From Colletotrichum lupini (taxonomy: Eukaryota > Ascomycota > Sordariomycetes > Glomerellales > Glomerellaceae), in the NCBI RefSeq assembly GCF_023278565.1, contig NC_064680.1, forward strand, positions 1,054,001 through 1,118,000: a stretch of 64,000 nucleotides of DNA, given 5' to 3'. Below, piece after piece: positions 3,001 to 31,673 of this stretch; positions within the stretch are counted from its first letter, which is position 1, and each line of letters opens with the position of its first letter. The position numbers and the translations under genes were made by a program. The notes under the pieces are model-generated. The model was not told the DNA's origin. It did no database searches and worked only from the letters and a program-made list of their open reading frames with translations.

Positions 3001-3433
3001 TATTTATTACCCTTAACCTATAGGTCGATTATTTAATTAATAAAAAGCCGTCCTTTAGTTATACCTTTTATTAATAATATAACTTTAAAATTATTCATAA
3101 TAATAAATATAAAGGTTAATTTATAACTAATTTACCCCTCGCTTATAACTCTATATATAAACTAATTTATTTTATAATTCCTTTTATAAATAGATTTTTA
3201 TATATTAATATTTAGTTTTCCGCTTTTAGTAGACCTTTTTATAATAATATAAGTAGTTAAGTACGCTTTTTTTAAACGTATATTTGTCTAGGGGGGTATA
3301 TTATAATAGCTTTAACTATTTATAGCCTTATTATATATTATATAACCTCGGTTATATAATTACCGAGGCCTACTTCGCTCGTACCCTTTATATTAAAGCG
3401 AGCTTCGTGCCTATTTCCTATTTCTAATAGACA
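1..3433 (+). mobile_element. RIP-degraded transposon remnant, left side outside window
   Basis: The stretch is almost pure A/T with dense stops in all frames and no open reading frame of note, the look of a repeat destroyed by RIP. The composition switches sharply to ordinary sequence near 3434. The right end looks like the 3' end of an LTR element: a G-run (3291-3296) like a polypurine tract, then a short terminal segment ending in aca. The internal sequence does not resemble the two copia-type copies further right. I could not recognise any protein domain in it, so class and strand are tentative. Confidence 0.6.
3297..3433 (+). repeat. Possible 3' LTR of the left-edge element
   Basis: The segment follows a run of six G and ends in aca. 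It contains a perfect inverted repeat, cctcggt ... accgagg, around 3346-3368, and a second interrupted one built on cgctcg/cgagcg at about 3374-3405. An alternative left end at 3285 gives TGTCTA ... TAGACA as outer inverted termini. The 5' partner LTR lies outside the window, so the borders cannot be confirmed. Confidence 0.35.
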
Positions 3434-3716
3434 ACCGTTCTCTTTATATACGTTAATACCCTTATAATAACTCTACGACAGTGGTCGAATGAAGAAGGCA
3501 AGTCCTGGCCACTGAAAGAAAACAAACGACCCGATCGATCAAATATTTTGCACCTCTGTACCCGCAGTTGCCATTCGAATGAGACATTGTTGCGCAAGGC
3601 TTTGGCACCCAACCTCGGCTTCTCCGGAACCGCCGGAACAACACGTCGGCTCTGACACATAATATCGACCAGAATATCACCTGCCCTCAATGATCATAAG
3701 TCTCGGAGATCCTCGC

Positions 3717-5402
3717 TCAACATTCACCCGTTGCGCTTCCTCCAACACAAGGAGTCCCAGTACAATTGAAGCCCTGCGGGCTCACAGCATTTCCGCAAAG
3801 GTATGAAGTGGCAGCAGTCCCGTTGGCAAACTCCAGGTCGACATCGAAGAGACCGATGTTGGTGCAGGGTGCAACAGCACTGCATTGGAGACTGGCAACG
3901 CGGGATGACTTGGTCGTGCCGACCATGCCATTGAGGGTGATGTCACGAATCTGGAATTGCGAGTTGGTGCAGTTGCCCACTCCAGGTGCGCCGCGGAAAC
4001 GGGTGCACTGGGAGATTGCAAATGCAGCACCGCGCATGCCCTGAACAGTGAGGTTCTTGAAAGACATATCCGACGCAACTGCAGAGTCAAGGTCGTTAGA
4101 GACATCCTCACCAAGAGTATTACTGCGTGTTCACAGCTTCAGACTTACAACCAAGCCCGCCGCCGCCGCCATTGGGAGGGTAGCCGTTCTGATCATCCGT
4201 CCAAGTTTTGAAGTAGACCTGAGGACATCGTTAGCACTGACGGGCTCTCATGGATTTGAAAGAGAAGGGCGAGGAGGACTAACGGCATGCAACGTGCTGT
4301 CAAAGAAGCAATTCTCGACTTTCAGCCTCTCGATGGTCTCAAACTGGTCGTTGTATTGTCCAATGCTACCAAGCGCAATGCCTAAGCCATTGTAGAACTT
4401 GGAGTTTGTAATGCTGACATCAGTGCTGTTTGCCTTGAGAGAGATGCTATCGTCGCCGCTGTAGACAGTCCAGTTATTGAACTTGATGCCGGAGGACCGG
4501 ATCGTGTCGGCTCCGTCCGTGTTCGCTATGCGAAGTCAGCGAGACTCAGTCTCTTGCTAAAGGCAGAGTCTAAAGCATGGTGTTCTGGACATACAGCTTT
4601 GGAATCGGTTTCCGGTGTTGTTGACCAAGATGCTATCGAGGACGACGTTATGAGAGTAGATGATGGACAAAGTCCTGCTAAACTTAGTCACGTTCCACCT
4701 TGTTCTATGGGAATATGCTCATACCACATCTGACTTCTCAAGAAATTTACCCCCTTTACAACAGAGTTCCTCAGCCCGTTGAGAGTGAGAGCATGCGGAC
4801 GACCAGGGTAGTTGGAAGTATTGGCTTGCTGTCTGATCCATTCATACCAGTAGTCGCCGTTGCCATCGAAAGTGCCTTGTCCATGGCCGTTGAGACGAAC
4901 ATTGTTGCCGCCGAGGATGAAGGCGGTGGACTGATTCTGATACCCAACATCCAGGGAGTTGGCGAGCCAGTACGAGATGTTCGTACTCCACTAACAGCCG
5001 GCAGTCTCGCGTTAGCTGATCGCCATAAAACGAAAGTCTTGGTATTGTTTGGCTTGGCGCATCACTCAAATTGAACCAAGATCGGGAAGGGGGGCAACAA
5101 GCCTGCCGTGGACGGTAACGTACCAGTAGAGTTCCCTGAAGATCAATCTCGACGTCGTCCAGCCAAGTGACATTCAGAGCGGAGTTGACAAAGTATGTCG
5201 TTGGCTCGAACACGACCTTGCCGCGCCGGCCGCACTGCGTGAATGCCTCGAGTATAGCAGGAGCGTCGTCGGTCGTGTTGGTCCCGCTGGCCTTGACAAC
5301 ACAAGTCTTGCGTCCAGCGGTGTCTTCAGTCTCTCGGGCACAAACCTTGGAAGCTGAAGCAAGTAGAGTGCAAAGCACGCCAACAGCCCAGGAATAGTGC
5401 AT
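3717..5402 (-). CDS. GH28 exopolygalacturonase-like secreted glycosidase
   Basis: Predicted extracellular pectin-degrading enzyme of glycoside hydrolase family 28 (galacturan 1,4-alpha-galacturonidase type). The chosen start at 5402 gives a clear signal peptide (MHYSWAVGVLCTLLASA). Conserved GH28 landmarks follow in order: NTDGADT, GDDSIS and GIALGSIGQY, then a cysteine-rich C-terminus ending in SATGEC. About six exons with GT-AG introns are needed; the first exon ends near 5124 and the second starts near 4990. The usual GHG histidine motif reads GLG, and the usual RIK region reads YFK. I recall such changes from the exo-acting subgroup, so they need not mean loss of activity. No other pectinase gene is next to it. 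A second in-frame Met at 5447 would put extra residues before the signal peptide and is less likely. Confidence 0.85.
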
Positions 5403-7924: not shown

Positions 7925-8804
7925 CGTGACAACAAGTGATACGCGACTTCAGCATCTGGATCAACGAGGGAAAGAGCTAAGGTGTTTTCACGATGTTGGG
8001 CACTTGCTTCAGCTTATACTTGTATAGTGAATCAATTGCACGACTTGCCAGCAAAAGATTCTGGCGTGCATCAGCCCGCTCATTAGTGTGTGTGTAGCAT
8101 TGAAACCCAATGGTCCAGACTGATGTCAACGGCAGTTTCCTGGCCCCCGACCTGCCTGAGACTCTATGTGGATTAAAGGTTCAAACTTGTGCTTTGCCAT
8201 TGACCCTGCGCCATGATGACTGCAGATGCACTCAACTAGACCAATCAGTGCTATATCCGCTCCCGTCCTTTCACGTAACTCGATGAGCTGTTGTTGGTTG
8301 CAATACTGCATGAACAATAACACCGAAATTATGAGCCTGGTAGTGACATACGGTGCCCCGAGCCTCACTTGTGATACAACACACAGCCTGCTTTTTTAGC
8401 GCGACTGAAGGCATTGGGGGTAATGCACGTGGACTAAAAGTCATATCATGATACCTTAGCCGACGCCGTGTGCTGACACCTCTTAGCTCGCGGTGGAAGT
8501 ACAGGCGATGATAAGCCATTTGCCCAGCCATGGCGCCATGTATGCGTGCGCCTGAAAAGGTGCCTCGGGAACTCAGCCACTCACTTTTCTGGATGACACC
8601 GAAGCCACCTTCAGTGGTTCGCAAAATGAAGAACTGCACTTTGCCTCGCTGGAGCCTGGCGAGCATCTGGCTCTGATGATTAAAATGCGAGAATTTGAAG
8701 AATGCGCACCCTCTTTGTATAACTCGCGAAGTCTTCACTAGACAACAAATTCTTTGGTTTGCAAACTTGTATTTGTATTCTTAAAAGCCCCGTCGTTGCT
8801 TTAC
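7925..8804. other. Intergenic spacer, no gene seen
   Basis: Lies between divergent genes (CorA-like to the left, A1 to the right), so it should hold both promoters. A 155-codon minus-strand frame (8271-8738) shows no family resemblance and no plausible exon partners; I treat it as chance. Confidence 0.5.
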
Positions 8805-9156
8805 ATGGATGATACAAATATCCGATCTTGGGCATCAAGGCTCAAGAGCTACATCCCGACTTTCGGCAAACGAGATAAAATGGCCAATACGGAAGAATTT
8901 ATCGCGACCGACACGATAATCGATCGATATGCCGACGTGAAGGTTTTGCAGAAAACGCTTTTGAGATTCAAGTTTCCCAAGGAGACGATTAAGGTGAAGG
9001 TAAGGCGTCGCCCAAGCCTCGCTCCCGTCCTTTCACATCCAGATAACATACTGATTCCTGATTTAGGCAACAAAAGCCGACTGTCTCAAGGTTCAACTTC
9101 CTCGAAAGTTGACCCCAGTGAGTCTAGATATCTCTTGGCTGGATGAATTTCTATGA
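8805..9156 (+). CDS. A1: small protein made of the array's shared C-terminal domain
   Basis: A 94-residue protein of unknown function. Exon 1 is 8805-8999, exon 2 is 9067-9156, with a phase-0 intron (gtaagg ... tttag). After a short basic N-terminus, residues 33-88 match the C-terminal end of A3. A1 reads DRYADVKVLQKTLLRF where A3 reads HRYGNVRVLQKILLAF. After the intron A1 reads QLPRKLTPV and A3 reads QLPRRLTLV. The intron falls at the same codon boundary in both. The start at 8805 (MDDTNIRSW) is preferred to one 51 bases upstream because the upstream residues look like translated leader. No signal peptide or membrane segment is seen. A1 converges on kinase K1, as A3 does on K2. I infer a small adaptor or regulator; the function is not known to me. 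Confidence 0.7.
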
Positions 9157-9712: not shown

Positions 9713-11533
9713 TCATTCGTCCGTGACTACTTCAGTCGGATGGAGGCTTCGAGTCTGGACCACCTGCTGTTTGAAGCTCTGCTTCCACACTTGCAGAACA
9801 TCTCGAACCTCATTCGACGCTGCCCGCGTACTGCCGTCGATGAGCAGCATTCTTGACTGGACAAGACTTAGGAATCTCTTCAAATACTCTGTGCACCGTG
9901 CATGGGCGCGGAGACGTTGAAATTGCTGACACCAGATTTCCGTCAGCATCACAAATTGGGCAGAATCGTCGATCATTGGATATTCAAACACTCACCGAAG
10001 TAACCGAGGGCTTTAGATCTGCAACAATGGTCCGAGGACCTCTTCTTGGCCACCACCATGTCCCTCGTTGCACCCTCTTCTTGAAGAAAGTATCTTCCAG
10101 TACCGGCGGGAACTCCAGGTCGACATCGATCTCATCTGTCTCCTGAAGGCGGTTTTCGCGGAAGCTCTCGACTCCAGCCCACCCTTCTATGGCCCAGGTG
10201 ATGAAGTCGAGAAACAAGCATCCCAAGCACCATATATCGAACGACTCATCCACCCTGGATCTCTCGAAATCTCTTTCAGGTGGCCGGTATGTCTTTGTCT
10301 CCGCCTTCTGCGTCGGACGTGTCGGAGAATTACGATTGAAAGGCTTAGATAGACCAAAGTCCGTTAGCTTCAAATCGTATGAGACTTTGCCATCGTGGGA
10401 CTGTTGGAAGCAGACAACGTTCTCCGGCTTGATGTCGAGATGAAGTTGGGCCTCGGAAGAGTACCCCCCTTCGCGGGAATCATAGCCATGAACCGTGGCC
10501 AAGGCGTCGGCGATGAAGTAGCATTGGTCTATCATCCATTGAACTGAGTACCAAGAGGGCCAATGCTCCGTTGAATCATGATGTAAGTCGTGCTTTCTCC
10601 ATAAGTCATAGAGACTGTCCCCGTCAGCCCAGGGAAACAGGAGATAATATCGATTTCGGTGTTTGAAGGCAGAAAATAGCGGTGTTATACGGGGATGGGT
10701 TGTCCTTTGGTTGGCAGCAATCTCATCCATAAAAGAAGTTTCGGCAGCCTTGGTCGTATGCTTCTTGTCGGTGATCTTCAACGCAAAATATTCTATAGGT
10801 ATTCCAGCTTGCTAAGACACGAGAAGTTATTAGTAAATATGGCCTGATCGGTGATCAATCCGATTTGCAAACTTGCATCTGAGAAATCGTGATGATCTCG
10901 GTGTATCTTGATTCTTTGCACAAACGAGACTTGTCCATCAAGTATCCTCCCCTGCATGTCGAGCTCTGACCACGGCAACGAAATCTCATCATGCAATAGA
11001 TGATAAGGCTGCTCATCAACCTTTGTCCTTGATTGACTGAAGTACGGAGACCTCATATGCCACTGCAGCTGGTGGAATAGCTCCTGATCATGTGCATCTA
11101 GGGCTTGCAGGACGTCCCGAAGCGCCTCAGCAGCACGGGAAAAGTAGGTTGGCAAGTTTGGATCGCTGCATGGCCAAGCTCCATCACAAATATGAACTGA
11201 AGTTTGATAAATATCCAATATTACTTCCTGTTTCCCAAGGATGAATAATGTTGCGAAGATAATTCTCAGTCCTGTGCACAAAGCATCCTTACAACAAGGA
11301 CATCTTTGATGCTTGCTGGGACTAATGAAACGTGCAATTTCAGCAATTTTAGTCTTGTCGGAGGGAATGAATGTGCTTAACAAGCCTGACACCTTCTTTT
11401 GGTCGAATTGGGACACTAAACTGCCCCGTGGAACGAACCGATTGCGTTTGTCGTTGAGATCTTGGCATGAAGCACGCAGGAGGATGCAGGCGATATCATC
11501 CCTAGCGGCGCCGACGTCGAATGACTGTGGCAT
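9713..11533 (-). CDS. K1: protein kinase with a cysteine-containing N-terminal domain
   Basis: Predicted Ser/Thr-type protein kinase of 561 residues from three exons (11533-10873, 10807-9996, 9925-9713) that join in frame. Residues 1-220 form a domain I do not recognise, with a CPCCKDALCTGLRI motif and an MRSPYF motif that are both conserved in paralogue K2. The kinase part has the beta-3 lysine (YFALK), catalytic loop HLDIKPENVV, DFG (LTDFGLSK) and a YRPPERD activation segment, so it should be catalytically competent. No ordinary glycine-rich loop precedes the lysine. The last exon encodes a helical tail (STRAASNEVRDVL) that aligns without gaps to the K2 tail. Introns at matching places show K1 and K2 arose by duplication. 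It sits between A1 (convergent) and A2 (divergent). A role in an allorecognition or cell-death locus is inferred from context. Confidence 0.82.
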
Positions 11534-13981: not shown

Positions 13982-14887
13982 ATGATCAAGTACTGGTTCG
14001 TCTTGGACCAAACTCATTATGAGGCGCCCGTTTATGTGGATGAGACGTACAGGGAAGCTTGCGGCACTCTTCTTTTGGGACACATCATTCCTGGTATCAA
14101 GAGCCTGGATCAAGTCATCAACAGAGACGAGCTGCCTGGCTTTCCTCGAACCTTTCGGGTCCAACGATCGACACAGAGCAACGTCTCTTGGTCTCGCAGC
14201 ACACAGTTAGATGGCAGTGCCGGCGCGAGCGCAGGTGCTCCAGCTCTTGCCGGGGTAGGGATAAGTATCCAAGCCGGGGTGAAAGTAGGGTCGACTACGG
14301 GAGGCAGTGATTCATGGGAGTTCGATCAGTTGGAGACACAGGCCATTGCGCCTACGACAAACTATATTCAGGATTGCATCAGGGCTCCTCAAGTTGCTGC
14401 ATATGTCAAGCAGCGCAAGACACTGGGCAGCTGGAAGCTTTACATGATTACCGGAATCAAAATTGGAAAAGGCGCAAAACTTGAACACAGAGACTGCCAG
14501 GGAAAATCCGGGGGTTCAAACCCGGGCATGTGAGTTTCAAGCGGACCACACTTCTGTTAGTGAGCCTTACTGACAATTTCAAGCGACATCGCTGATGCCT
14601 TCAATGTGGGAATCGAGGGCCAGTATTCTCGGCTAACCGAGACATCAGTGACAGCTCAATATGACGATGCCTTCATTTGGGCTGTCAGGCTACTTGAGAT
14701 CTCAGGTAGTTGGTTTCATTCAAGTATTGGGCTTGAAGCTGTCACTACGGGAACCACACTTGGTCTAGACAAAACCCAGGCCACTGCCGAAGCAACTGCC
14801 CTTGCCGCCGGGCTGGATAATTATTGTGTAATAAGCTCTGATCATCCAGGGGATGATGAGGAAATCTTGCTTCTCGCTGTCGACTGA
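13982..14887 (+). CDS. Gasdermin-like pore-forming cell-death protein (HET-Q1/RCD-1 type)
   Basis: A 283-residue protein from two exons (13982-14529, 14584-14887) joined in phase 2. The length suits fungal gasdermins, which consist of little more than the pore-forming domain plus a short C-terminal segment. Seen in the sequence: LYMITGIKIGKGAKLE, a glycine/serine turn, GIEGQYSR, then DDAFIWAVRLLEI. The order and spacing match the strand pattern of the gasdermin N-terminal domain (in human GSDMD an LYVVTE strand, later G-GQG and FRVAQLVI). The C-terminal 70 residues end in an acidic helix-like tail (DDEEILLLAVD), a possible autoinhibitory segment. The neighbour is a convergent subtilase gene with only 127 bases between stops. 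Fungal gasdermins are typically encoded beside the protease that activates them (HET-Q1 with HET-Q2 in Podospora). A start at 13907 would add 25 residues. The family call is from pattern recognition, without a profile search. Confidence 0.72.
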
Positions 14888-15014
14888 TTGCAAACACACT
14901 GTCATTGGTAATCATGGCATGTTGATGCCAGACGCATCTAATGTCGTTCACGTTAGAAGAGAGGCTACAGAACTGTATAAATTTTCGCACACTCATAGAT
15001 TAGGCCAAATCTCG

Positions 15015-17687
15015 TCAGTAACGCCAAATCTCATCAGCCAAGTCAAGCGTCTCGATCAATTTGTCGCGCACCGTGATTCTTATCTTATCCCTTGTACTTT
15101 CGTCGAAGCCAAACCCTTCCTTCAAGGGAAGCTGTCGTTGTAGGTTCCCTGGCAACAACTTCCACGGGACGATACACCGATAACACCCATCGGGTTCTGA
15201 AATCATACCAAGTACTTGGGTCAAATGACTCCTGTACTTCAAAACATCCGCAATTTGCTCCCTTTTGCCTTCGGGGTCTCTAACTTGCTTTGAGAAGTTC
15301 AGCAAGAGAGATACTAAGCCGCAGGCAAGCGCAGTCGAGTAAGACGTGCCGGACACCGTTCTGGGTTGTCTTGTGTTATCGGAAAGCTCCACATTCTCGC
15401 CTAGTATGGCAAAGTTGTTCTCATGGCGGCTTGTTGGATTGAGATCATGAGAGTTCTTGATGTTGCCATTCGTTGAAAAAGTACAAAATATGTCCCCACC
15501 CCAAGCGGCTGGGTACGTGATTTGTGCAATGTTTCCGGGATTAGAAGCTGCAGCAAACACATGGATGCCCTTGTTAATAGCATCTTGCAAGGCTTTCCGA
15601 AGATCGGGGACTCTTGTCGTGAACCCAAAGGCCATACAAATGACCTCCGCCTTCTGCTCAACTGCCCAGTTCACTGCCTTGATACATGGCAACGTGAGCT
15701 TTAATCTCGGAAGATTGTGCTTTGATTCAAACTCACATCGACTACTGCCTTTGCAGTACCACCGGTTTCGTTGTTTTTTTCCCAGACTCGAGCCACAAGA
15801 ACATCAGTGGAGTCACACATTCGGTAAATTAGCTTCACAATGTTCGAGCCATGCCCCGTAATATCTGTCATCTGCACTTGCTCGTTCGAGCCATGTCCCG
15901 TAATATCTCTCATCTGTACTTGCTCAGTTCTAGTGAAGTCGCGATATGAGTGGGCTTGAATTCCGAAATGCTTTGCCTCTTCCTGAGTAATACCGGTATC
16001 CAGTACTGCTACTCGAGTCTGGGTAGACTGTTTACGAGAACCTAAAATGGAATAAACGTCATTCATCTTTCTAAACCAGAGTGGAGATGAGTTCTCTCCA
16101 TGACTATGAGCTTTTAGTTAGAAATGAATGCGAAAATAGAGGTTTAGTCGCGTCTTTACCTTCCAGAAACACTGCCGTGGAAGTTTTCTAAACTCAAGGG
16201 GGTCGTCTCATTGACCACGCCTTCGCTGCGGCTTGGTCCCTGTGATGTCGCTCTGGTGAGAAAGTTCAAGTTCCATTCTCGGCATTCTGGTGAGTCGGAT
16301 ATTTCGTATTGTTGCCAGTTTCTCTCCAATAGCGAGATAACTTTGTGATAGATCCACTCATTGGTCGTCATCTCCGCCATTTCCTCAGAATCAGCCGCTG
16401 CCAAACATGATCTTACGGCTTGTTTCACAGATCCGCAAAGGCTGTATTCATAATCACGACTTCTGACCCAACTTTCTAGACAACTGCGTTTTACAGAGAC
16501 TGGCTGAGGACCTCTCGACAGTCTCTTTCCAGTTGAAATTTCCATGAGAATTTGGGCGAATGACAGCATTAGTGTTTCAACAGTGCCTGTCTTGGATGTC
16601 TTGTCTGGAGAGGACGTTTCCTTTTCGTTCTCTAGTCGAATGGACAGATATGGTCTCTCTACATCTATAGTCGGGGGATTTGAGCCATCCGGTGCTCCGG
16701 GGCTCCAAGACAGAAAGATGTTGTCGAGGCTCCACTCATTTCGGACCCACGCGTCCGGTGAAAGATGAACTAAAGCTAGTGCGAGATTCAGGGAGAGTGC
16801 TGCCTTTTCTGCAGGAAGTATGCCGTTGTCCATGGGGAGCTGGTCACGGCTGCCGAACCAACCTTGGTCAAGAAGGTTACCGAGACATTGTGTTGGGGTG
16901 TGAGGCGTCCGATTCGACTTCTTCTCAGTCACAAGAACGACGTGTCTCCTATCGCGAGCTTGCTGGATATTGATATACAGAGGCTTTTTGGACTCTTCAC
17001 AGAGACTTAGAAGCCTGCAGAGGTAATCTTGGTGTGCAGAGGCTTCTACATCGGTATCCTGTCTTCAACCACAGAGGCGTTAGCACCCTTTCAAGGTTTA
17101 CATGTGTTCACGTACATGACTGTGTCGTAAGAAGCTTCATTCCATCCTGAATTCAGTTCCGAGTTGGATGAGAGGAAAAGAGAGAATCGACCGGCTGCAT
17201 CTGTGTTCTTCATACAGAAACCGTTCAAATGAAGACGCGCTATGTGGTTCCCACAACAGCGTGACAGACGCACGAGAACTTCAAATAGATTACTTGAAGG
17301 CTCGGTTAGAAATGTCCTGCGCTCAGATGGTGTTGTCGTCTCGAAAGGAATGTCGCCTCCCATTGTTGTTTGACAAATTACTGAACACCTGCTGAAGTCA
17401 ATCTCGTTCGAACGATCTTGTTGGCCCAAATTCACTGCTAATATCTCCCATTCCTCCAAAGCTTGGCGGTTATCGAATGAACCGGAACCACGTGGATTTT
17501 CTGATTCTTCCGGAAGATAGTCCCACAGCTGTAATATCTTGATATCGGCCACTAATAGCTCGGCATCGTTCCGGAAGTCTAGACGTTGTGGAGACTGATC
17601 AGTCTCGGGCACATCTGCAACTATCTTTTCGACACGTTCTTTGATTCGCCCTAGCAGGCCAGAGACTGGCTTTTCCAACCAGTTCAT
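15015..17687 (-). CDS. Subtilase (peptidase S8) with pseudokinase-like N-terminus, HET-Q2-like partner
   Basis: An 834-residue predicted serine protease from four exons (17687-17112, 17058-16160, 16103-15737, 15677-15015), all junctions in frame. Residues 1 to about 580 resemble the degenerate kinase-like region (DUF7580 type) common in fungal incompatibility-type proteins (for example a WSLDNIFLSW stretch where a kinase has its catalytic loop). The C-terminal S8 domain has the full catalytic set: Asp in VAVLDTGI, His in DITGHGSN, the oxyanion Asn in AASNPGN and Ser in VSGTSYSTALA. There is no signal peptide, so it should act inside the cell. The His motif is present twice in direct tandem. 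The gene converges on the gasdermin-like gene. By analogy with HET-Q1/HET-Q2 I infer that it cleaves that protein near its C-terminus. Confidence 0.8.
15842..15925 (-). repeat. 42-bp tandem duplication over the subtilase His motif
   Basis: Two adjacent 42-base units (15842-15883 and 15884-15925) differ at three positions. They keep the frame and encode EQVQM[RT]DITGHGSN twice, so the protease has two copies of its catalytic HG motif 14 residues apart. Confidence 0.9.
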
Positions 17688-18322
17688 AACATTAGTAGGT
17701 ATCCGACAAGTTGAGGTCGAATGAGGATTGGTCTAGGTGCGTCCTCCAGATCTAAGATACTGCGGAGTTTGATTGTGATAGTAACTGTACTGTCGAGGCC
17801 GAGCAGCGGGTCGCGAGGATGAGGAGAAAGTGTGACGGAGCTCTGTTGTTATCTCCTCCTTCAGCAAATATGGTAAGTATTATCCGTACGATAGGTACTT
17901 TCGAATAAACCTAAATAGAAGGTGTGGGTGGGGCCGCAAACGGGAACGGTTCATGGACATCGGCGCCCCCCCTCGCCTGCTTGGCCATTTCCGTTGGCAT
18001 CCAGTCAAAAGTTCTGATGTCTTGCCGAAGTCACTTCGACCTGCAGGCACCACCCGCCCAGCTGACCGCGCTGCAGGCCTGGTGATATTCACATGTACGT
18101 CCGATGCCACTCTTCATATTGTGACACTCTCAGAATGGAAGGATCAATGTTGGGGCACGTCAATTTGACTCCAGGCCTATTCCCCGAGCCTGATTACGTC
18201 TGACACATCTCCAAGTAAAAATAGTCCCAATCAAACTGCAACTCTGGTTTCTCGGACCAAAGCTTCATATCCACAGCATACTATGCAAACATTTCTCATT
18301 GCGAATTCTTCAGCTCTCCACC
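17688..18322. other. Spacer between divergent subtilase and A3 genes
   Basis: Should contain both promoters. A GC-rich patch lies near 17,920-18,090. No gene was recognised. Confidence 0.5.
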
Positions 18323-20409
18323 ATGGCCGCACCTGCCTTCAATGAGCAAGGTCCTGCGATACATATCGCGGCCCGGGGCTGCGACGATCAGCTCCGCGAT
18401 ATGATACAAACCACCCACCAAGGTAAAACCGCTTTGAAAGAGCTTCAACAAAGGTTTCAGGCCTGGGCAAACAATTCGGGGGTCTTCGCAGAGCAACAAA
18501 TCTGCCTCGACGCTCGATTGAGCGACCACAAGCCGCCGCGATTGATCATTTTGGAGATGATCAAGCTCATACAGCGCAATCTCGAAACTGGTATTTCATC
18601 CCAAGGGGCTGAACCCTACCCTATCTGTAAGCTCACTTTGACACAGCGCGGAGCAACACTATCACTGTGCAAGAGAGCAGACTCGAGACAAAGTTGGGGG
18701 ACAGGTTTCCAGGAACCACTGTCCAATTGAGTGATACCGAGGAACCTGGCCTTGATTTAGATATGAGGTACCTGAACGTCGCCTTCAAGGGGGTATTAGG
18801 CGCTCTTGAAAGGCTCAATCGCATAGCCGCGTTGATCTCAAAATCTTCCAAATTAAGTCGGCCAGCTAGATTGGAAGAATTCATCCGAAGAAATCCACAA
18901 GACTCAGAAACTGAGATAGTCATCAAAGGCATGGTCTCCGGCAAGTTCCCGGACATTCCTGGCTTGCTGAAGACACAACTTATAAGATCCATGATCTATC
19001 GAAGAAAACGACTGGAATACGAATGCGGCAGACGAGAAAGGTTATACAACACACGTGCTGAAGAAGAAAATGCGAGCGCCTGGCATGATGATGGTAAGGC
19101 ATCAACGTATCATCAGTCGGCCTTCAATGAGGGCTATGACGCAATACAATTAGAGCGGACCACCTCAGTCAGCACGACGACAGCAATAGGAACGGAGATC
19201 CAATACCCTCGGCAACCAAAGGCTGAAGCTTCTGAAGACATCACAAGGAAATGTCAGTTCTGTCGCAAGCAATTCCCAACGGAGCAAGTGACTAGAACTC
19301 GGTGGTGGAGGTCAGTACAACTCTTTTCGTCACATGTCCTCACACCACTATGCAGCCCAACCAGAAAGCAACATGGGAATTGATTGAATTAATCATGCTC
19401 CGCGAGTACTTAGGCGTCACGTGGATGAAGACGTAGAGCCGTTTGTTTGCATTTCGGAGAAGTGTGCATATCCCCCTCAAACGTTTGCGAAGTTGACCGC
19501 ATGGCGAACACACATGGAAACCGAACATGGTCTTGACTGGATGCATCACGCTCACCGCCCGCAAGACTCGGAACACGAGCAAAAAGCAGTATGCTTTATG
19601 TGTAAGCAAGTCATATCAGAACAGGAACCGCAGCGAGGGCAATCTGCTGGATTGTCTGAGCCTGTCAACACTACACGCACCACTATCATTCCAGAGAGTC
19701 CAACGCCGAATTATCGACGCCGTCAAGTCCAGTTTGCAGATGACAATAAGGAGCCGAGAGTCGCTCCGGAATCTCGATTGAAGGGAATTGAAGTTACAAG
19801 GACCCATTCCAGCCAAACAAACCTAACAAGCCACATTGCAAGGCATCTTCAATCTCTGTGCTACCAGTCAATCAGCATTGGAGTTGATGATGAAAATACA
19901 GAAGATGGAGATATAGAAGATGAAGGTACAGAAGATGAAGGTACAGAAGATGAAGGTTCAAAAGATGAAGGTACAAAGGTTAGCGACAACACAGAAGGGG
20001 GCGTTGCCGAAGGGGAGAATGAGAGATCCTCGTCCGATGGTATCGATCGTTCCAGCGGTCAAGGTGGGAAGGAAGAAGATGTTTCAGTAGAATCCCAGAA
20101 AAGGGACTTACACACTAACACAAGTTCCCCATCGAAATCAGGCCAGAGGAACGAGTTTCGAGCAACTGACGTAATTTTTCATCGGTACGGCAACGTCCGA
20201 GTCTTGCAAAAGATTCTACTAGCCTTTGGCATTCCAAAGACCGATATCAACATAAGGGTATGATGGCAGCGAGAAATAGATGCTAATACGAGAAACTCCG
20301 TTAACGAAATATACATTGGTAGGCTACAATGGAAATGGGTTTCGAACTACAGCTTCCTCGGCGACTGACATTGGTTCGTCAAGCCTTCTACTCGCCCCAA
20401 ACTGCTTAA
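18323..20409 (+). CDS. A3: AcuF-type C2H2 zinc-finger protein ending in the shared domain
   Basis: A 620-residue protein from four exons (18323-18590, 18647-19310, 19414-20257, 20323-20409), all in frame. Residues 1 to about 250 resemble the helical N-terminus of fungal proteins with an AcuF-like C2H2 zinc finger. The zinc-finger part has CQFCRKQF, then CISEKC and HMETEH, then W; a further H..H pair follows at SHIARH. A disordered acidic tract with tandem DEGTE repeats follows (19,900-19,980), then the last about 60 residues match A1, including the phase-0 intron position (DINIR before, ATMEMGF after). It converges on kinase K2, repeating the A1/K1 layout. No DNA-binding role is proven; the finger could bind protein. 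The start at 18323 sits in a good context (accATGG). Confidence 0.75.
19900..19980 (+). repeat. Short acidic tandem repeat inside A3
   Basis: Units near gaagatgaaggtaca recur four to five times and encode DEGTE/DEGSK repeats. In frame and part of the coding exon; such tracts often vary in copy number between strains. Confidence 0.75.
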
Positions 20410-20705: not shown

Positions 20706-22513
20706 CTACTGTTCCGTGACTCTCCATCGTGCCAATAGGTCGCGGGCCTCAGCCGATGTAGCTCGGTTGCCGCTATCTGCGACAAGCATATTCGATTCCA
20801 TGAATTCAAGCAGAGCAGCAAGGAATTGTGTGCACATAGAGTCATTTAGAAGAGACTCTATTTTCTATGATTGAAGGCAGAGAGTCAGCACATTGTCTGA
20901 TATTAATCACGGCCTGGTCAAATTGGGGGTTGCGTTCGAGCCTCACTTACTATCGTGACTGATTCTTTGAGCACCGGGACCATCTTCGCGCCTTCGAACG
21001 TGGTACTCGTAGTCTTCATCCTATCTGAAATGTCCTTTACTCTACGCATGGAGAAGAAAGTATCTTCTAGAACGGGAGGGAATTCATCGTCGTCGTATGC
21101 GTCGTGTACTTGCTTGAGGCGCTCGGCTTGAAAGTCATCGATCCCAACTGATCCGTTCAGAGCCCAGATAGCGAACTCAAGATAGAGGCAACCCAAGCAC
21201 CATACGTCCCAGGAAGTACCTATCATTGAGTGGGGAAACGCTTCTTCGGGTGGCCGATAAGTCTTGATTTGGACGACGCTGTTCCGCCGCACGTAGCCAT
21301 CAACGACTGGCAAGGCCAAGCCGAAGTCGATTATCTTTAGGATGCATAATGGTCTTCCGCCAATAAAATCAGCAAAACAGACAACATTCTCGGGCTTGAT
21401 GTCTTGATGTAGCTGAGGCTGAAGAGCAAACCCTCCCAACTCGGAGCGATGGCCATGAATGGTGGCAATGGCATCAGCCAGGTTATAGCATTGGTCTGCC
21501 ATCCAGTCCATGGAGTACCGCGGCGCAAAAGAGCTTATGCCTTCTTGGGCACCAACGAGGGAGTACTCGTCCCAGAATTGTCGCAGGTTTCCACCCTGTG
21601 CCCAAGGAAGCACAATGTAGAAGGCGTCTCTATGTTCGAAGGCTGTGAGAAACGCGACAACGTTTGGATGTGTCACCTTCTGATTCGATGCGATTTCGCT
21701 CCTAAATCTTTCTGCAGCGAATTTCAAATTTCGACCCTTTTCGAAGGCTTTCAGCGCAAAACTGTCTCCTGGCATTCCCTAGCTTACTTAGGTTAGAATG
21801 TGAAAAGGATGAACAACGCGTAGGCGGTCGTCAAGAGTGCTTACTAGCGCATGGTGATCTTGGTGAATCTTGATTCTCCGTACAAAGGTTCGTTGGCGTC
21901 TATTCCACTTTTCCCGGACCTCTAATTCTGTCCATGGTAGGCTTACATCGTTTGGAAGTCGTTGGTGATATTCGTGTCCTGACGGAAACATTTTTGTAAA
22001 GTACGGTGATCTCATGGGCCACTGTTCCTGAAATACAAGATCTTTCTCTTCCAAATGGAGAGGTCGGAGAATTTCCTGTATCGCTGAATGATGCGCTGTG
22101 CGCGCATCTGCCGCATTGATCGGCCACAAGCTATCGCAAAGAGAGGGCGAGGCTCGCCAACAACTAATGATCAAGTCTTCTCGGGCCATGGACAGAAAAG
22201 CCGAGAACATGATTCTTAGACCAGTACAGCATGATTCTCCGCACTCGCAGGCCTCCTTTTTCGGACTTATGAAGGTGGCGATTTTGTCAACAAGAGGCTC
22301 GGTATAAACACCAGGATCAAGGAGTATTTGCAGAAACTCTTTGACCCTCTCGCGGCTCAACACAGTGAATAATTGACCTCGAGGAATGAACCATCGACTG
22401 TAATCTTGGAGATCCCTTTGCGAAGTTAGGTGAAGTGATTGCTGGATTACATCGCGCGCTGCTTCAACAAGATTGGGGGAATGGGCCTGGAAGAGAAAGT
22501 CGCATTTTAGCAT
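20706..22513 (-). CDS. K2: protein kinase paralogous to K1
   Basis: A 551-residue predicted protein kinase from three exons (22513-21845, 21778-20951, 20864-20706), all in frame. The N-terminal domain (residues 1-223) has CECGESCCTGLRI and MRSPYF at the same places as K1. Kinase landmarks are SFALK, HQDIKPENVV, IIDFGLAL and YRPPEEA, so it looks catalytically intact. The C-terminal exon encodes MLVADSGNRATSAEARDLL, matching the K1 tail residue for residue in spacing. It converges on A3, whose last coding base is 296 bases away. K2 and K1 share their intron positions, and their partner genes A3 and A1 share the C-terminal domain, so the duplication probably involved the gene pair. Substrates are unknown. 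Confidence 0.82.
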
Positions 22514-23839: not shown

Positions 23840-24044
23840 TGTTAGTATCCCTATTACAAGGTAGTTAGTTCGAACCGTAGTTAATAAAGAGATTAATTAA
23901 ACTATATAAATATTTATATAATAAGTATAAAAAGGAGGTTCTAACTATAGGTTAAGCTAGCTACGATAATTATAAATAGGGCCCCTAATTAGCCCCTACG
24001 TAGTTAGTTATATACCGTAGTTAAATTAAACTTCTAATCTAATA
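23840..24044 (-). repeat. LTR, left end of copy 1
   Basis: 205 bases starting tgttagta and ending (RIP-altered) aata where the right copy has gaca. It is a direct repeat of 31057-31261 with transition differences. Confidence 0.85.
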
Positions 24045-27000
24045 TTAACTTTCTCTTTTTTTTATTAATTTAATTATTATAATTAGAAATATAATTCGAC
24101 CTCGGGCCTATTTACTAAGTCGTCTCCTTTTCCCCCTTTTTTTTATTCTTTTTATATAACCTATCCCTCTATTTATATAATAACTTTTCTATTACTTACG
24201 AATTACTTTAATCCCTTATTTAATACTACTTTTATAAAAGCGTTTACGAGGTTATTTTTATTATTAATCTAACGGATCTTAAGTATCTCGCGCCTTTTAT
24301 ATAATTACTTAAGGGCTATAATATTAATTATAAGCCTCTTTTCCTTCGTCGTTCCTAATTTAATAAAGTATTTATATAATAAATAAGAATTAATATAAAT
24401 AACTATTAAAATAGGTATAAAGCTAATTTAATTAGTAATTTTTTTTAATATTATTAAAATTATATAAGAGAGGTTAACGCCGTTAATTATACTATAAGCT
24501 TCTAATATTAGTATACTTCTCGTTACTTACTTATTTTTAGTTAATAAATAGTAAATTATATTATTATATATAATAAATTCGCTCTTATTTATATTCTTAT
24601 TAATGAGGATAATAATATACTCTAATTATAAAATAAAGTTATTATTATTTATAAATAACTTATTAATAAAGACGTAGAGCTTATTAGTTATAAAGTCGAT
24701 TAAGTAATAAACGAGACCTCGATTAAGATTCGTTTATTATTACTTAAGCCGCTTATTAAGTACCTTAACGTCTCGGTTAGTTAGATTTATAGCCTATGCT
24801 ACTTTAATATAATTAAAAGTTACCTCGGGTTAATAAATATTTATAATATATACCCCTCGCATAAGCTTAGCCTTATACTACTTCTTAATACTAGTTATAT
24901 TTAAATTAATAAGGTTAATTTTCTTATTTTACCCCTTTTATTAAAAAACGACGGTTTCCCTTTTAATTATAAAAATCCCGCCGTTAAATACTAAGGGGGT
25001 ATTTATTATAAAAACCTCTTTTAGCTTCGCTATAAAGCCCGCTTTTTAAAGCTCCTTATTCTCTTTTTTTATAAAGTTAATATTAAATAGGCCTAATATA
25101 TCGTCGGTTTATATTTTAATAATCTTAAATTAATTACCTTTATACTCCGTAACTAATAAGTACGGGTCGTATATAAAAGTAATTATTAATAATTAATTAA
25201 TATAAAAATCGTAATAAGTAGCTTATTAATAAGTGCCCGATTTTATAAGCCTATATAATAACTTAAGCACTTTAATAATCGTACTTTCTAAGTACTTACT
25301 AACTATTTCTTTTAGTAAATAGGCTAGGATTTTCTTTATAAGCCCTATAGCTGATTAGGTATAAGCCTAGGTAATATTACGGCTCTAAATCTCGTATCCC
25401 TTTTTTTATAATAATATTATTAATATTATTATTAATCGTTAGCTATAGCGCTATATAGTAGGTAATTATATAAGTAGCGTTACTTTTTTAACGTTATTAT
25501 ACTTTTAAATTACGTATTTAAACTTTTCGTACGGCTAGGGTATTCTTTTCTTTTTAATCTTACGAACTATTCGTAATTTAAATATATAAAGGTTTATATA
25601 TTTTTTTAAATTATATAGGATAAATTAATAAACCCCTTGATTATAAAGAGTATTTACTTTAATAAGATTTAATCTTTTATATAGCTTTTTAATAATTATA
25701 ATTACGCCTTCTTTACGTAGTTTAATTACTAACTTAAAATCGGTTTTCTTTTTTATTATATAAAAAGTATTAATTACCTCGTTATTAATAATAAATTACT
25801 ACGTTAGGGCTTACTATCGTAGTTTTTTACGACGTCTTATTAGTAATATTAATACCTTTTTAGTAATTTCCTCTTCCTCGTCGTTTATTAATACTATTAT
25901 AACAATTTCGTTAAAAATAATTTCCTATATTTCTACTACGGGTTATATAGTTTCCCCTAGCTCTTCTTTTTTTTATAAGTTAAAAATTACCTCGTTAAGT
26001 TTTTTATAGTACGGTTTAATTACTATAATTAATACTTTAAATAGCTAATTATAATTTCTTATAACTATATAAAAGCGCTCGTTAATAGAAATTAACTTAT
26101 ATAGCCTAGCCTATTATTAAGTAATTTTGCGCTATACTTATATATCCGAATTTAGTAATATATCTAAATTACCCCCTATATCGGGCCTATTATATATAAT
26201 AATTACCTCGTTAACTTACCTTTTTATATTTACTTTGCGTAGTACTTATATTACTTTTTTAACTACTCGGGCTCGTTAGTTCATATTTAATAATAATAAT
26301 AAGGCTAAGGTCGTTTTTCAATATATTTTAAATACTAATAGCGTTAATATAAGTCCGTTAGGCCTTTTAATATTATTATAGTATTTAAGTATTATTTAGA
26401 GGCATTCGTTATTAATAAAATCCGGATTTCCTTTTTTAATCATTCTAAACGCCCTTTTTAATTATTAATATACCCTTTTTACTTTTTTAATACTATAGTA
26501 CGCTTTAATAAGTACGATTTTTAATTATATACTATAAGCCGTCGTATTATCCTTAAATTCTACTAACTTAAAGTTAGTACTAACGTTAGTTTTAATACTA
26601 TTTAGTAGTCCTTAATATATATCGATCTAGCTTTTTTATAGGGCTACTTATACTATCTTTATTTATAAATCCTAGAGGAATTGCCCTATTTAAAAAGATA
26701 TAACTATGTTAATTATATATAATACTAGCCGACTATTTAAATAGAAAATATTAACGACGATTTCCTAGTTAAAGTTAAGCTTATTACGTAATTTAAATTC
26801 AAATCTGCGTAAGCTTTGTGTATTTATTTAGTATTAATAATATACTTTCGTTAACTATTTTAGTACCCCTATTTTAATATTATTATTACTTAATTACTTT
26901 AGGAAGTTATATAGCCTCGTAATTAACGGGTGCCTAAATCTTTAATATAATCTTCTAAGCTTACTTTTTATTAAGTAATTAATTAACTTCGTATTATTAA

Positions 27001-30000
27001 TAAGCTTTATAAACGTATACCCCTATTGTTATTTAACTATTTCGAAATACGTATTACTAAAGATTCTATTCCTCGTATTATTAAGTATAATACCTAATTT
27101 ATCTATATTTTTTAAATATAAGAGAAATAGGGTATTAATAAGTAAAATATAAAAAGTTATCGTTCCGAAGTACGTTTTTACTTTTATTATACTTAGGGTA
27201 ACGATTTCCTTACTTAGGCCGAAACTAATCCTTATAATACCCGTTATTAACGTATTAAGTATTACTAATACGATCTTTTATAATACTTAAAATTACCCTT
27301 TTTTTCTAATTAACTATTATAATACCTTAGTATTTAAAATAATCTTATAGAAATTATTTAAGCCGTACTTTTTACTTATATAAAATACCTATACGAGCTT
27401 AGTATTTAAGGGATTTAAGTAACATAAAAAGGACCCCTCTAGTTACCCCTAGATTTACTTAGTACTATATTCTTTTTTTTTTAAATATTAAAAAAAATAA
27501 TATCTTCTCTTTAATCGTTAAGAGAATAGGCTTTAGCCTTATTAAATTCGCTCTTTTAGCCGTTTTTTTATTTATTATTTAAAGGACCTTTTTTTATTAT
27601 TTATAAATAAAAGCTTATTTATTAAGAGCTTTTATTACCCTCTATTTATTTAGCCTCGTATATCCTTTAAAAGCTAACGGGGTAAAAAAAGAATAGTTAA
27701 TATTATTAATTTTATTATAATTTAATTTATTAATATAAGGGGTAAAATCTTCCTTATCTTCCGAATTTCTTATAGGAGGTATATACTTTAGGCCGCTATT
27801 TTAGCTACTATTACTAAGTTCTATACCCCTAAATCTACTTTTATATATAATAAAGAATTAGTTAAACCGACGAGGGCTAGTTTTATTATTTATTATTCTT
27901 AACTTTTTATATTATTTATATAATTTAGTACGCTCTTCTTTAAAATAATTACTTAATTAATATTTATCCTTTTTATAAATATAATATTACCTCTTTTATT
28001 ACCCTACTTATAAGTTAAATCTCTACTTATTTAATAAATCTAGGCCTCCTTATTAATAATTATTATATTTAGCCTCTTTTCTTTTTTTATTATATATTTA
28101 ATTAACTTAATATTATTAATAAGGGCCGTTATACGCTTAGAAATAGGTTTAGTATAGTATTTTTATTTTAATATTAAAGCTAGATCTTAGCCTCGAGTAG
28201 AGCGTCTCGTAGTTTTTAAATACTTAATATAAGGTTATTTTTATTTCTAATATACGCTAAATTATATTATAAAAATATCTAACTTTCTACTTATTTATCC
28301 CTTTATTTAGCTAGGTTTTTACTAACTTATTAATTTAATTAATAAGTTTTTTAAAGATTTTTACTCGTAATTTACCTTTTATTATCCTAGCTATAAATCT
28401 AAAAAAAATTATTTATAGCTTAAATAAGAGCTCTAAGTTCCTATTATAAGTCTCGAAGTAGCTTCAGATTACGTTAATTATACTAAAAAAGTCGTTTTAA
28501 TTAAAATTACGTACCGCTTCGTAATAATAATTAAAAGCTTTACTTACGAGTACGATATTAATTATTAAATAGTACTAATATTCCCTAATTCCGACTTTTT
28601 CGTAGTAATTATAAAATATTATTAGGGTTTTTTATAAAACCTTATACTTCTCCTTAGAGTATAATTTCTTTTTTAAAAAGATTTTTTTAAAGTTTATAAA
28701 TTACCTCGTATTTATTACTAAATTTTCGGTATTTATATACGATCCTTGCGTTACTACGTATTATTAATAACTTCGGGTCGTTTACCTCCTTTTTTATTAA
28801 CTAATTAGTACCGAATTTCGTATTAATAATAGTAATAAGTTATAAATCGAAAGAAGTAGAATTATTAATTATTATATTTTTAATACTATATTTTACCTCG
28901 GTATATCTTTTTATAATAATAGATTTTTATTAGTAATTATAAAAAAGAAATCTAGGTCGTTTACCCTTTTTTTAAATTCGTTAAAGCGATTATACGCTTT
29001 ATTAACTTATACTTAGTTCTATAATACGAATTCCTCCTCTATAATTATTATTATTAATATTTTATATAGCTCTTACGATTATAATTACGCTAGTAATACC
29101 CCTTATTTATAAAAGAATCTATTAATTACTTTTATAATTCCTAGGCTTATACTCGTAAACTATTTATTTAGTTAGTAATTAAGGTTATTTACGATTTTAC
29201 AAAATAGGGGTTACTCCTATAGCCCCTTTTTTTTATAAACTTTAGTTAAATAGATTAATATTATATTAATCTACTTACCATTAAGCTAATTCGCAATTTT
29301 ATATATTTACGTCCCCTAATAATCTAGGTTAATATTTACTTATTTATAAGGGATTAGGATTCTATTTAGGATCGGGTTTTATCCTCTTTTTCTTTATTTT
29401 AACTTACTAAGGGTCGTACTCTAGCTTATATTTATATTAATAACTATTAATATATTTAATCTTAATAAGGATATATTTAATCCGCGCGCTAGTTATAATA
29501 AATCCGTACTTTCGCTACTTAACGAATTTATTAAAGTTTAAGAAATTCCTACTTCCTCTTACTATCTTATTACTACTCTCGTTTTTACTATTTTTAATAA
29601 TTATTATTACCCTTTTAAATTATTAACTATCGTACTTACTAAGATCCTCCTTTTTATTTAATATAAAAGGGTAAGTTTTAATAATTCCTTTTTATAATAA
29701 TAGTAATAAACGTTTATATTATTATAAAAAAATATAATAATTAGTCTTAGGATCTTTATTAGTTACCGATTTCTACTATTTTATATATTTCTAGCCTCCT
29801 AAGCCTCGTACTTTTTATAATTTCTAAATAGCTTCCTTTTTTAACTTACTTCTTTTAGGGCAGTATTCTATAAAAATAATTAAAAATAAATACTAAGTAG
29901 CTCGTAAAAGAGCTATATAGGCTATTAAGAACTATATAAGCTATTAAGTATAGTTAACGAAGTTAAGCTCTTTTTTTTATAAAATCGTAAATTTTAAGGA

Positions 30001-31056
30001 CTTACTAAAAATACTTATTTATTACTTATATATAGTAGGGTTAAATACTTTAAAAATCTTATCTTTTATGGCCTTTTAGTACCCTATTTTATATTTTTTA
30101 AGTAGTTTTTTTCGTAGCTTAATTATAGTTAAGTAATTATTACTTATTAGCGATCCTTTTTATTACTTAGATCATTTTTTAAAATTAATAATCTCGCACT
30201 AGGAGTTAATATAAAAAAAAGCCTTTTAGCGGCCCTTTAAAAGATTTCTTTTTTTTTTTAAAATCCTCGTTTTTTCAGCCTTTTTTTAAGCTAATAATAA
30301 CTCTAATAAGAGGTCGTAAGACTATTTTAAAATAGCCGCCTTTTTTTTAAATTAATTTCTAAGATTTATAATATTCTTAATTTAATATTATTAAGACCTC
30401 TAAATCCCCTCCTTTTTTATTAAACTATTTTTTATATTATATTCTTAAATAATATTTAAAAAGTAGTTAAGGGAGCTATAAAAAGGTTACTTAAATCGTA
30501 GGCTTAAAGTTATACTTATAAAATCCTCGTAATAATAAACTTTTTTATATCCTATAAATCTCTTAGCTTAATAACTCTTATAAAGTTACTTTTATTACTA
30601 AATAAAAATATTTACGTTTAAAAATCCCCTTTTTTAATTACGTAATACTCTTTTATATTATAGTATTAAGCTCGTTTATTATACTAATTAATTAAATAAA
30701 TAGTTATTACGTAAGTATTTCTTTTTATTAATTTAATTAGTTAATTTCTAATCGTAGGCCGGCTATAGAAAAGTCGTTTAATAAAAAAGCTACTCGGGGT
30801 AATAATAAAAGGCTAGTTACTTAAGTAATTTCGTTAATTAACGTAATTTAATATAATAAACGTCGACCTCTCGTAAGTAATAAAGGGCTATAATTACTTA
30901 ATTCCGTATAGTATTTAAAAATCGCCTCCTTTTTTATTTACTTCTATAAAATTAATTAATACGAATCTCTTATCCCATATAGTATTAAAAAGTCGTCTCT
31001 TTTATATAACGAAATACTTTACTAATTTATAATAATAAAATTTAATTACTAATTAA

Positions 31057-31261
31057 TATTAATATCCCTATTATAAAGTAATTAGTTCGAACTATAATTA
31101 ATAAAGAGATTAATTAAATTATATAAATATCTACGTAGTAAGTATAAAAAGGAGGTTCTAACTATAGGTTAGGCTAGCTATGATAATTATAAATAAGGCC
31201 CCTAATTAGCCCCTGTGCAGTTGGCTGTATGCCGCGGTCGAATTAAACTTCTAATCCGACA
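31057..31261 (-). repeat. LTR, right end of copy 1
   Basis: 205 bases with a RIP-altered start (tattaata for tgttagta) and an intact ccgaca end. The last 60 bases keep GC-rich words lost in the left copy. Confidence 0.85.
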
Positions 31262-31673
31262 GTAAGGTTCACTCTCACTTCGTAAAAACCATGAGCCAAG
31301 AAGCTTACGAGTACCAATAAGTAGTGTTGAGAAGTTAATTTTTATCCATGACCAGTTCAATTTACGTAGCCATGGGTTCATAATGTAATTCGTCCACAAA
31401 TGGCTGCAACACGACTCGTGTAACATGCCAACTCCGTCCTGAAGGAGTTACTATCAGTCAAAGTTAGGCTTTTCTCGGAATCAAAAGCAATATAGGTTGA
31501 TGATTGTTCTCCTGAAATTTGTACATAACGCCACCTTTCCTCTGATCGGCAAGACCTAGTAGGAAGGACTTCTCAACCACCACTATCATTTCATATCATC
31601 TCAGCCACTTGAACAATCAGTCCAACTCGCAAATCAGCAACACGATCACCATCCTCTAGTCCAACCATTCAAA
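31262..31673. other. Unaffected sequence between element and small gene
   Basis: Ordinary composition directly against the LTR; it should contain the promoter of the small secreted protein gene. No other feature was seen. Confidence 0.5.

What the first reader, a model, noticed from the sequence alone, without database searches (positions are those of the whole stretch)
13982..17687. Gasdermin-like gene convergent with a subtilase gene: a HET-Q1/HET-Q2-type cell-death pair
Seen: a 283-residue protein with gasdermin-like strand order next to, and tail-to-tail with, an intracellular subtilase bearing a full catalytic set. Established: in Podospora, HET-Q1 (gasdermin) is activated by C-terminal cleavage by the subtilase HET-Q2, and fungal gasdermin genes are often beside protease genes. 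Inference: this pair is a programmed cell-death or allorecognition switch, here with a pseudokinase-like N-terminus on the protease.
Basis: partly seen in the sequence, partly recalled or inferred. Interest (0 to 1): 0.9.

Follow-up and report, generated by a model that had tools for sequence, protein, structure and literature searches.

The report
RCD-1-type gasdermin with subtilase partner
In the plant-pathogenic fungus Colletotrichum lupini a gene for a pore-forming gasdermin (closest solved relative: Neurospora RCD-1) lies tail-to-tail, 127 bases away, with a gene for a subtilisin-type protease that is predicted to cut it and so would kill the cell, and the predicted sensor half of that protease has a different family tree from its catalytic half, which likely reflects sensor swapping between fungi.

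Summary
A two-exon, 283-aa gasdermin gene (13982-14887, +) converges on a four-exon, 834-aa protease gene (15015-17687, -) with DUF7580 in front and a complete S8 subtilase behind. Sequence decides the gasdermin claim: the window protein alone matches the solved RCD-1-1/RCD-1-2 chains at E 2.9e-30/3.7e-27, and the fold model of a 99% identical orthologue finds the RCD-1 pore first (E 2.2e-16). The interpretation needs three corrections. (1) It is RCD-1-clade, not HET-Q1-clade, but carries a 45-aa acidic C-tail that RCD-1 lacks, about the size of the piece HET-Q1 loses on cleavage. (2) Both genes are in one genome, as in ordinary gasdermin/protease (Q2L) clusters, not idiomorphs like het-Q1/het-Q2. 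(3) The protease is mosaic: residues 1-466 group C. abscissum with C. nymphaeae, while the catalytic half and the gasdermin group C. abscissum with the window (0 of 2000 permutations reach the break statistic). Best reading: a DUF7580-gated subtilase clips the gasdermin tail and triggers death; cleavage and trigger are untested. The window protease also has a 14-residue tandem duplication of its catalytic-His motif, absent from the six relatives aligned. New variant of a known kind.

The parts
13982..14887 (+). RCD-1-clade gasdermin gene, 283 aa; exons 13982-14529 and 14584-14887, intron 14530-14583
   Evidence: Gene model; PDB matches; fold; tree
13982..14749 (+). Pore-forming core, residues 1-238 (matched by RCD-1-1 over residues 2-238); spans the intron
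14750..14884 (+). C-terminal tail, residues 239-283: 45 aa, 4.6 kDa, 9 Asp/Glu and 1 Lys/Arg; beyond the RCD-1 match; predicted inhibitory and predicted to be cut off
   Evidence: inhibitory role inferred
14888..15014 (.). 127-bp gap between the two convergent genes
15015..17687 (-). DUF7580-subtilase gene, 834 aa; exons 17687-17112, 17058-16160, 16103-15737, 15677-15015
16312..17300 (-). DUF7580 domain, residues 130-441: predicted sensor/regulatory part, possibly degenerate kinase
16207..16239 (-). Recombination-type break, residues 466-476, between sensor and catalytic halves
15249..16021 (-). Peptidase_S8 domain, residues 520-757; Asp527 at 16000-15998, His576 at 15853-15851, Asn660 at 15542-15540, Ser726 at 15344-15342
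15842..15925 (-). In-frame tandem duplication of 42 bp (14 aa) carrying the catalytic-His motif; 93% identical copies
   Evidence: absent from P0007-P0012

Best explanation
This is a two-gene cell-death module in which a DUF7580-subtilase, predicted to be held off until its front half senses a trigger, would cut the 45-residue acidic tail from the neighbouring RCD-1-clade gasdermin, so that the freed core likely forms pores and kills the cell. Shown here: both genes and their domains, the intact catalytic set, the gasdermin fold by homology, the tail missing from RCD-1, linkage in related fungi, and the conflicting trees of the two protease halves. Inferred: that the tail inhibits, that this protease cuts it, that DUF7580 senses, and that the output is death. 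The tail-to-tail order puts the protease's catalytic end next to its presumed substrate gene, so recombination at residues 466-476 can exchange sensors without parting enzyme and substrate.
For: Gasdermin: window protein alone vs RCD-1-1 E 2.9e-30 and RCD-1-2 E 3.7e-27; six-sequence profile vs RCD-1-1 9.4e-41 and HET-Q1 2.3e-4; model of P0001: best PDB hit RCD-1 pore E 2.2e-16, TM (target) 0.74, rmsd 6.1, then bacterial gasdermins, GSDMD and GSDME further down. Tail: the RCD-1 match ends at residue 237/238; [quoted passage not shown] HET-Q1 loses 40 residues (PMC10989679, passages). The first 14 tail residues are 12/14 and 13/14 identical in C. costaricense and C. nymphaeae (C. abscissum as stand-in for the window). 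Protease: DUF7580 + S8, triad. Pairing: 4 of 6 gasdermin records share a contig with a protease record. A second DUF7580 + S8 gene lies 1.4 kb from another gasdermin gene at C10:2421893-2426217 of the same genome. Mosaic: residues 1-466 have 104 sites grouping C. abscissum with C. nymphaeae against 18 grouping it with the window; from 476 on, 4 against 79; 0 of 2000 permutations as extreme. Trees: sensor abscissum+nymphaeae 96/100; catalytic window+abscissum 100/100; gasdermin window+abscissum 99/98. Printed background: ~63% of fungal gasdermin genes cluster with S8 protease genes (PMC10197012, section 15); protease domains may be fused to 'predicted kinase-like domains' (PMC12881547, section 20).
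Against: No cleavage, inhibition or death was tested. The tail is modelled below pLDDT 50, so no docking onto the core is predicted. It is less conserved than the core (29/45 vs 194/238 and 193/238; 13/45 vs 84/218 in C. eremochloae). The nearest characterised relative, RCD-1, works without proteolysis (PMC12547243, passages). In this genome only 2 of 6 gasdermin-like loci found have an S8 match within 10 kb. Linkage elsewhere is by shared contig, not measured distance. The duplicated His motif might impair this allele.
Confidence: 0.72

Rival explanations
1. RCD-1-type trigger without protease: death occurs when two divergent gasdermin alleles meet after hyphal fusion; the protease is a bystander or a separate regulator.
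For: RCD-1 clade membership. Two records named C. lupini carry gasdermins 129/183 identical and proteases about 53% identical, so divergent versions exist under one species name. RCD-1-1 and RCD-1-2 are 40% identical over 240 residues.
Against: The window clade keeps a 45-residue tail that RCD-1 lacks, and keeps a catalytically complete protease on the same contig in four other records. Whether the two C. lupini versions are alleles at one place, and whether both records are truly one species, could not be checked.
Confidence: 0.15
2. The pair is real but switched off or altered in this strain: the 14-residue duplication at the catalytic His spoils the protease, leaving a silent or decoy allele.
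For: 42-bp tandem duplication over the His motif, absent from all six aligned relatives, including the otherwise ~99% identical catalytic domain of C. abscissum.
Against: The reading frame is kept, the second copy sits in the native sequence context GHGSNIVKLIY, and the rest of the triad is intact. The copies already differ at 3 of 42 bases with the frame open.
Confidence: 0.2
3. HET-Q1/HET-Q2 system: a gasdermin/subtilase allorecognition pair of that family.
For: Gasdermin plus subtilase, tail of similar length, divergent versions between records.
Against: Gasdermin is RCD-1-clade; the genes share one genome, whereas het-Q1 and het-Q2 are idiomorphs; HET-Q2 is 388 aa against 834 aa with DUF7580 here.
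Confidence: 0.08
4. Chance neighbours with unrelated functions.
For: 4 of 6 gasdermin-like loci in this genome have no S8 match within 10 kb.
Against: Shared contigs in four other records, a second DUF7580-S8/gasdermin pair in the same genome, and the same tree for gasdermin and catalytic half.
Confidence: 0.03

Closest known systems
Neurospora crassa RCD-1-1 / RCD-1-2 (PDB 8JYX, 8JYY, 8JYZ)
   Same: Closest solved relatives by sequence (about 30% identity over 241-243 residues) and by fold
   Different: RCD-1 is 257/244 aa, lacks an inhibitory C-terminal domain and is activated by pairing of two alleles without cleavage (PMC11760362; PMC12547243). Here there is a 45-aa tail and a protease next door
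Podospora anserina HET-Q1 / HET-Q2
   Same: Gasdermin controlled by a subtilase that removes ~5 kDa from the C-terminus (PMC12881547, PMC10989679): the working model used here
   Different: Distant gasdermin (E 2.3e-4 with the profile, none with the window protein alone); idiomorphs, not linked partners; HET-Q2 is 388 aa; P1 residue F238 has no established counterpart here
Fungal Q2L gasdermin/protease two-gene clusters
   Same: Gasdermin beside a multidomain S8 protease with a non-protease sensor part (PMC10197012 section 15)
   Different: Architectures named there are mainly ANK, TPR and WD40 repeats or NLR; a review figure legend mentions fusions to predicted kinase-like domains. DUF7580 by that name is in none of the held papers. 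Sensor/catalytic mosaicism was not seen in the passages I read
Bacterial gasdermin-protease operons (bGSDM)
   Same: Gasdermin with a short C-terminal inhibitory piece and a protease beside it (PMC12881547)
   Different: Only weak sequence match (PADLOC bGSDM E 0.0089 for P0001, none for P0003)

Membership tests
Gasdermin superfamily (fungal gasdermin) | Sequence homology to a proven gasdermin | tested here: met
   phmmer of window protein: RCD-1-1 E 2.9e-30, RCD-1-2 E 3.7e-27
Gasdermin superfamily (fungal gasdermin) | Gasdermin N-domain fold | tested here: met
   Model of 99% identical P0001: RCD-1, bacterial, GSDMD and GSDME structures among the 24 best hits. Mean pLDDT only 62.8 because the ends are disordered; core blocks mostly 80-95 with loops below 50
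Gasdermin superfamily (fungal gasdermin) | Membrane pore formation / death on expression | not testable with these tools
   Needs expression
RCD-1 clade | Groups with RCD-1 rather than other fungal gasdermins | tested here: met
   97/96 for window clade + RCD-1 + P0039; 91/85 for window clade + RCD-1 (HET-Q1 is a long branch)
RCD-1 clade | No inhibitory C-terminal part | tested here: not met
   45 residues beyond the RCD-1 match; whether they inhibit is untested
HET-Q1/HET-Q2 system | Gasdermin is the HET-Q1 orthologue or close kin | tested here: not met
   No HET-Q1 match at E <= 10 with the window protein; outside in the tree
HET-Q1/HET-Q2 system | Idiomorphic: the two genes in different strains | tested here: not met
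   Both in the window; shared contigs in four other records
HET-Q1/HET-Q2 system | Protease removes the gasdermin C-terminus | not testable with these tools
   Needs co-expression
Q2L gasdermin/protease cluster | S8 or CHAT protease gene within 10 kb of a gasdermin gene | tested here: met
   127 bp apart
Peptidase S8 | Family match and Asp/His/Ser triad with oxyanion Asn | tested here: met
   Pfam E 2e-17; residues
Protein kinase / pseudokinase (DUF7580) | Kinase homology of DUF7580 | tested here: inconclusive
   hhalign probability 75.6, E 2.4e-5 over 108 columns with 11 kinase ORFs; 0.22 with two window kinases; controls 0.11 and 0.06. No Pkinase match in Pfam at E <= 1; model unreliable there

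The most novel reading that the evidence does not exclude
A missing link between the two known ways of firing fungal gasdermins: an RCD-1-lineage gasdermin still under protease control, from which tail-less, partner-less, allele-paired RCD-1 was derived by losing tail and protease; and a locus whose convergent gene order welds protease to substrate while the DUF7580 sensor is exchanged between species, a plug-in recognition head for pyroptosis-like death.
Probability: 0.35. Interest if true: 0.82.

Novelty: new variant of a known kind. Interest (0 to 1): 0.6.

Why it matters
RCD-1 is the textbook case of a gasdermin that needs no protease. A close relative with a tail and a linked protease suggests that this mode is a loss, and makes that testable by removing the tail. 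The sharp break inside the protease shows which half varies independently of the killer, so the recognition part of a gasdermin system can be mapped by swapping natural halves.

Tried and rejected
Pfam, NCBIfam and PADLOC give no usable gasdermin call: libraries lack the family, not evidence against it. AlphaFold on the protease from six sequences gave mean pLDDT 54 with DUF7580 mostly below 50; no fold is claimed from it and it was not fold-searched. No CHAT protease lies within 10 kb of the gasdermin-like loci found; the two CHAT matches are elsewhere. The HET-Q1 filing was rejected. The idea that a kinase family is general to gasdermin loci was not borne out: the N-terminal region of the flanking kinases is found at three places, two of them in this window, and the kinase near the C10 pair is only about 30% identical in the kinase domain. 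I looked for the primary papers of Clave 2022 and Daskalov 2019; they are not held, so their content is taken from reviews. Papers: PMC12881547 section 20 and passages; PMC10197012 section 15 and passages; PMC10989679, PMC12547243, PMC11760362, PMC13304501 and PMC9262711 passages only; PMC11138114 abstract and outline. Literature searches on this locus: 'gasdermin' + 'Colletotrichum' gave 8 papers, none about such a pair by title; 'DUF7580' gave 0; one search gave reviews already seen, RCD-1 papers and unrelated work.
Full report
What is there. The window is bases 1054001-1118000 of contig C7 of a 63.4-Mb genome. C7 is 4,999,002 bases long, the contig length of the C. lupini record P0002, whose protein is 261/261 identical to mine where both have residues; I therefore take the genome to be that C. 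lupini assembly. The gasdermin gene has two exons, 13982-14529 and 14584-14887. The protease gene runs 17687-15015 on the other strand in four exons. The two end 127 bp apart, tail to tail.

Gasdermin. Pfam is silent, but the protein by itself matches the solved chains of RCD-1-1 (E 2.9e-30, residues 2-238) and RCD-1-2 (E 3.7e-27) and nothing else convincing. A profile of six Colletotrichum sequences gives RCD-1-1 at 9.4e-41 and HET-Q1 at only 2.3e-4. When paralogues from C5 and C10 are added, HET-Q1 rises to 2.8e-10 and bacterial gasdermins appear at 0.006. The model of the 99% identical C. abscissum protein (37 sequences; mean pLDDT 62.8, core blocks mostly 80-95) finds the RCD-1 pore first (E 2.2e-16; TM 0.74 by target, 0.49 by query; rmsd 6.1), then RCD-1-2 crystals, bacterial gasdermins, GSDMD, Trichoplax gasdermin and GSDME, and then perforin-like proteins. 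In a 27-row tree the four window-clade proteins, both RCD-1 proteins and one metagenome protein form a supported set (97/96) without HET-Q1, which is a very long branch.

Tail. RCD-1 similarity stops at residue 237-238. The remaining 45 residues weigh 4.6 kDa and hold nine Asp/Glu and one Lys/Arg. RCD-1 is reported to lack an inhibitory C-terminal part (PMC11760362, passages), while HET-Q1 loses 40 residues to HET-Q2 at F238 (PMC10989679, passages). The first 14 tail residues are nearly unchanged in C. costaricense and C. nymphaeae (12/14, 13/14), the middle is variable (9/20, 10/20), and the end is partly kept (8/11, 6/11); in C. eremochloae these are 6/14, 6/20 and 1/11. I infer that the conserved stretch right after the core is where regulation or cutting happens. 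The model does not place the tail (pLDDT below 50).

Protease. DUF7580 (residues 130-441) precedes Peptidase_S8 (520-757), and the triad with oxyanion Asn is present. No propeptide-inhibitor family was found at E <= 1. All six relatives found have the same two domains. DUF7580 aligns collinearly to a kinase profile over 108 columns (probability 75.6, E 2.4e-5; controls 0.11 and 0.06; only 0.22 against a two-sequence profile of the window's own kinases), so a degenerate kinase is plausible, not shown. In this genome DUF7580 occurs at seven places by my reading of eight matches. Two have an S8 domain (window and C10), and both have a gasdermin beside them. Of the other five, the C3 gene starts with a HeLo domain (E 7.9e-28), the C1 start is a sub-threshold HeLo match (E 0.14), and the C5 and C9 starts have no Pfam match though they look similar by eye; the fifth was not scanned.

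Mosaic. Against C. abscissum the window protease is 92/129, 127/171 and 101/141 identical in residues 1-129, 130-300 and 301-441, but 85/85, 109/110 and 73/74 in 561-650, 651-760 and 761-834. C. abscissum against C. nymphaeae is the reverse: 115/129, 158/171 and 126/141 in front, 63/85, 88/110 and 51/74 behind. A maximum-chi-square scan puts the break between residues 466 and 476 (18:104 against 79:4; 0 of 2000 permutations as high). With C. costaricense or C. lupini BDP67 as third sequence the window stays closest to C. abscissum in both halves, so the conflict concerns C. nymphaeae alone. Trees agree: sensor abscissum+nymphaeae 96/100, catalytic window+abscissum 100/100, gasdermin window+abscissum 99/98. 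Enzyme and substrate thus share a history that the sensor does not. Exchange between species, or old shared polymorphism, are both possible; the latter is known at het genes of Aspergillus fumigatus (PMC11138114, abstract).

Duplication. Bases 15842-15925 are two 42-bp copies, 93% identical, giving EQVQM(R/T)DITGHGSN twice. None of P0007-P0012 has it. Its effect is unknown.

Pairing elsewhere. Four gasdermin and protease records share contig lengths; distances are unknown. In the window's genome I found six gasdermin-like loci (C7 window; C5 twice, one frameshifted; C10; C9; C7:902245). S8 matches lie within 10 kb of two and CHAT of none. These searches list best candidates, so counts are lower bounds.

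Comparison. Reviews state that ~63% of fungal gasdermin genes cluster with S8 and 19% with CHAT protease genes (PMC10197012 section 15) and that proteases may be fused to predicted kinase-like domains (PMC12881547 section 20). The kind is therefore known. What I did not find in print is an RCD-1-clade member with tail and linked protease, or a sensor/catalytic mosaic. The primary survey (Clave 2022) was not available to me, and may contain the first.

Verdict. Gasdermin and protease identity: firm. Functional pairing by tail cleavage: likely. HET-Q1/HET-Q2 family: no. Allorecognition: open.

Noticed in passing
window 18299-20263 (+): A gene divergent from the protease, no Pfam match in its three ORFs. 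Its second half has only two other matches in the genome: C7:901630-902082 (E 1.2e-6, 27%), which is in one open frame with a gasdermin-like domain (C7:902245), and a 43-residue match at window 8874-9002. Its first half has one weak match at C1:4871293 (E 0.007, three stops inside), next to and divergent from a DUF7580 gene. Possible third component.
   Followed up: partly
window 8754-9146 (+) and 20147-20260 (+): A shared ~36-residue motif (20 of 36 identical) in a small ORF and at the end of the 18299-20263 gene; each is followed by a convergent kinase gene.
   Followed up: partly
window 9984-11533 (-) and 20918-22513 (-): Two paralogous kinase genes flank the pair on either side (36% identical in the N-terminal part, 44% in the kinase part); the N-terminal region is found at three places in the genome, two of them these.
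   Followed up: partly
L009 (C10:2420001-2429900): Second DUF7580 + S8 / gasdermin pair, same strand, gasdermin of another clade; the protease frame has in-frame stops, which may be introns or damage.
   Followed up: partly
L006 4388-5307 (C5): Another RCD-1-like gasdermin copy whose matches change frame near 4790, without an S8 match nearby; an intact gasdermin of another clade follows at 7958-8812.
   Followed up: partly
P0005 and P0010 (C. lupini BDP67): A second record under the name C. lupini carries a much diverged linked pair (gasdermin 129/183 identical; protease 53%). P0005 ends where the window gene has its intron.
   Followed up: partly
window 1-4000, 24001-34000, 38001-46000: AT-rich blocks, mostly 21-31% G+C (38001-40000 is 37%), around gene-bearing stretches of 44-58%.
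   Followed up: no
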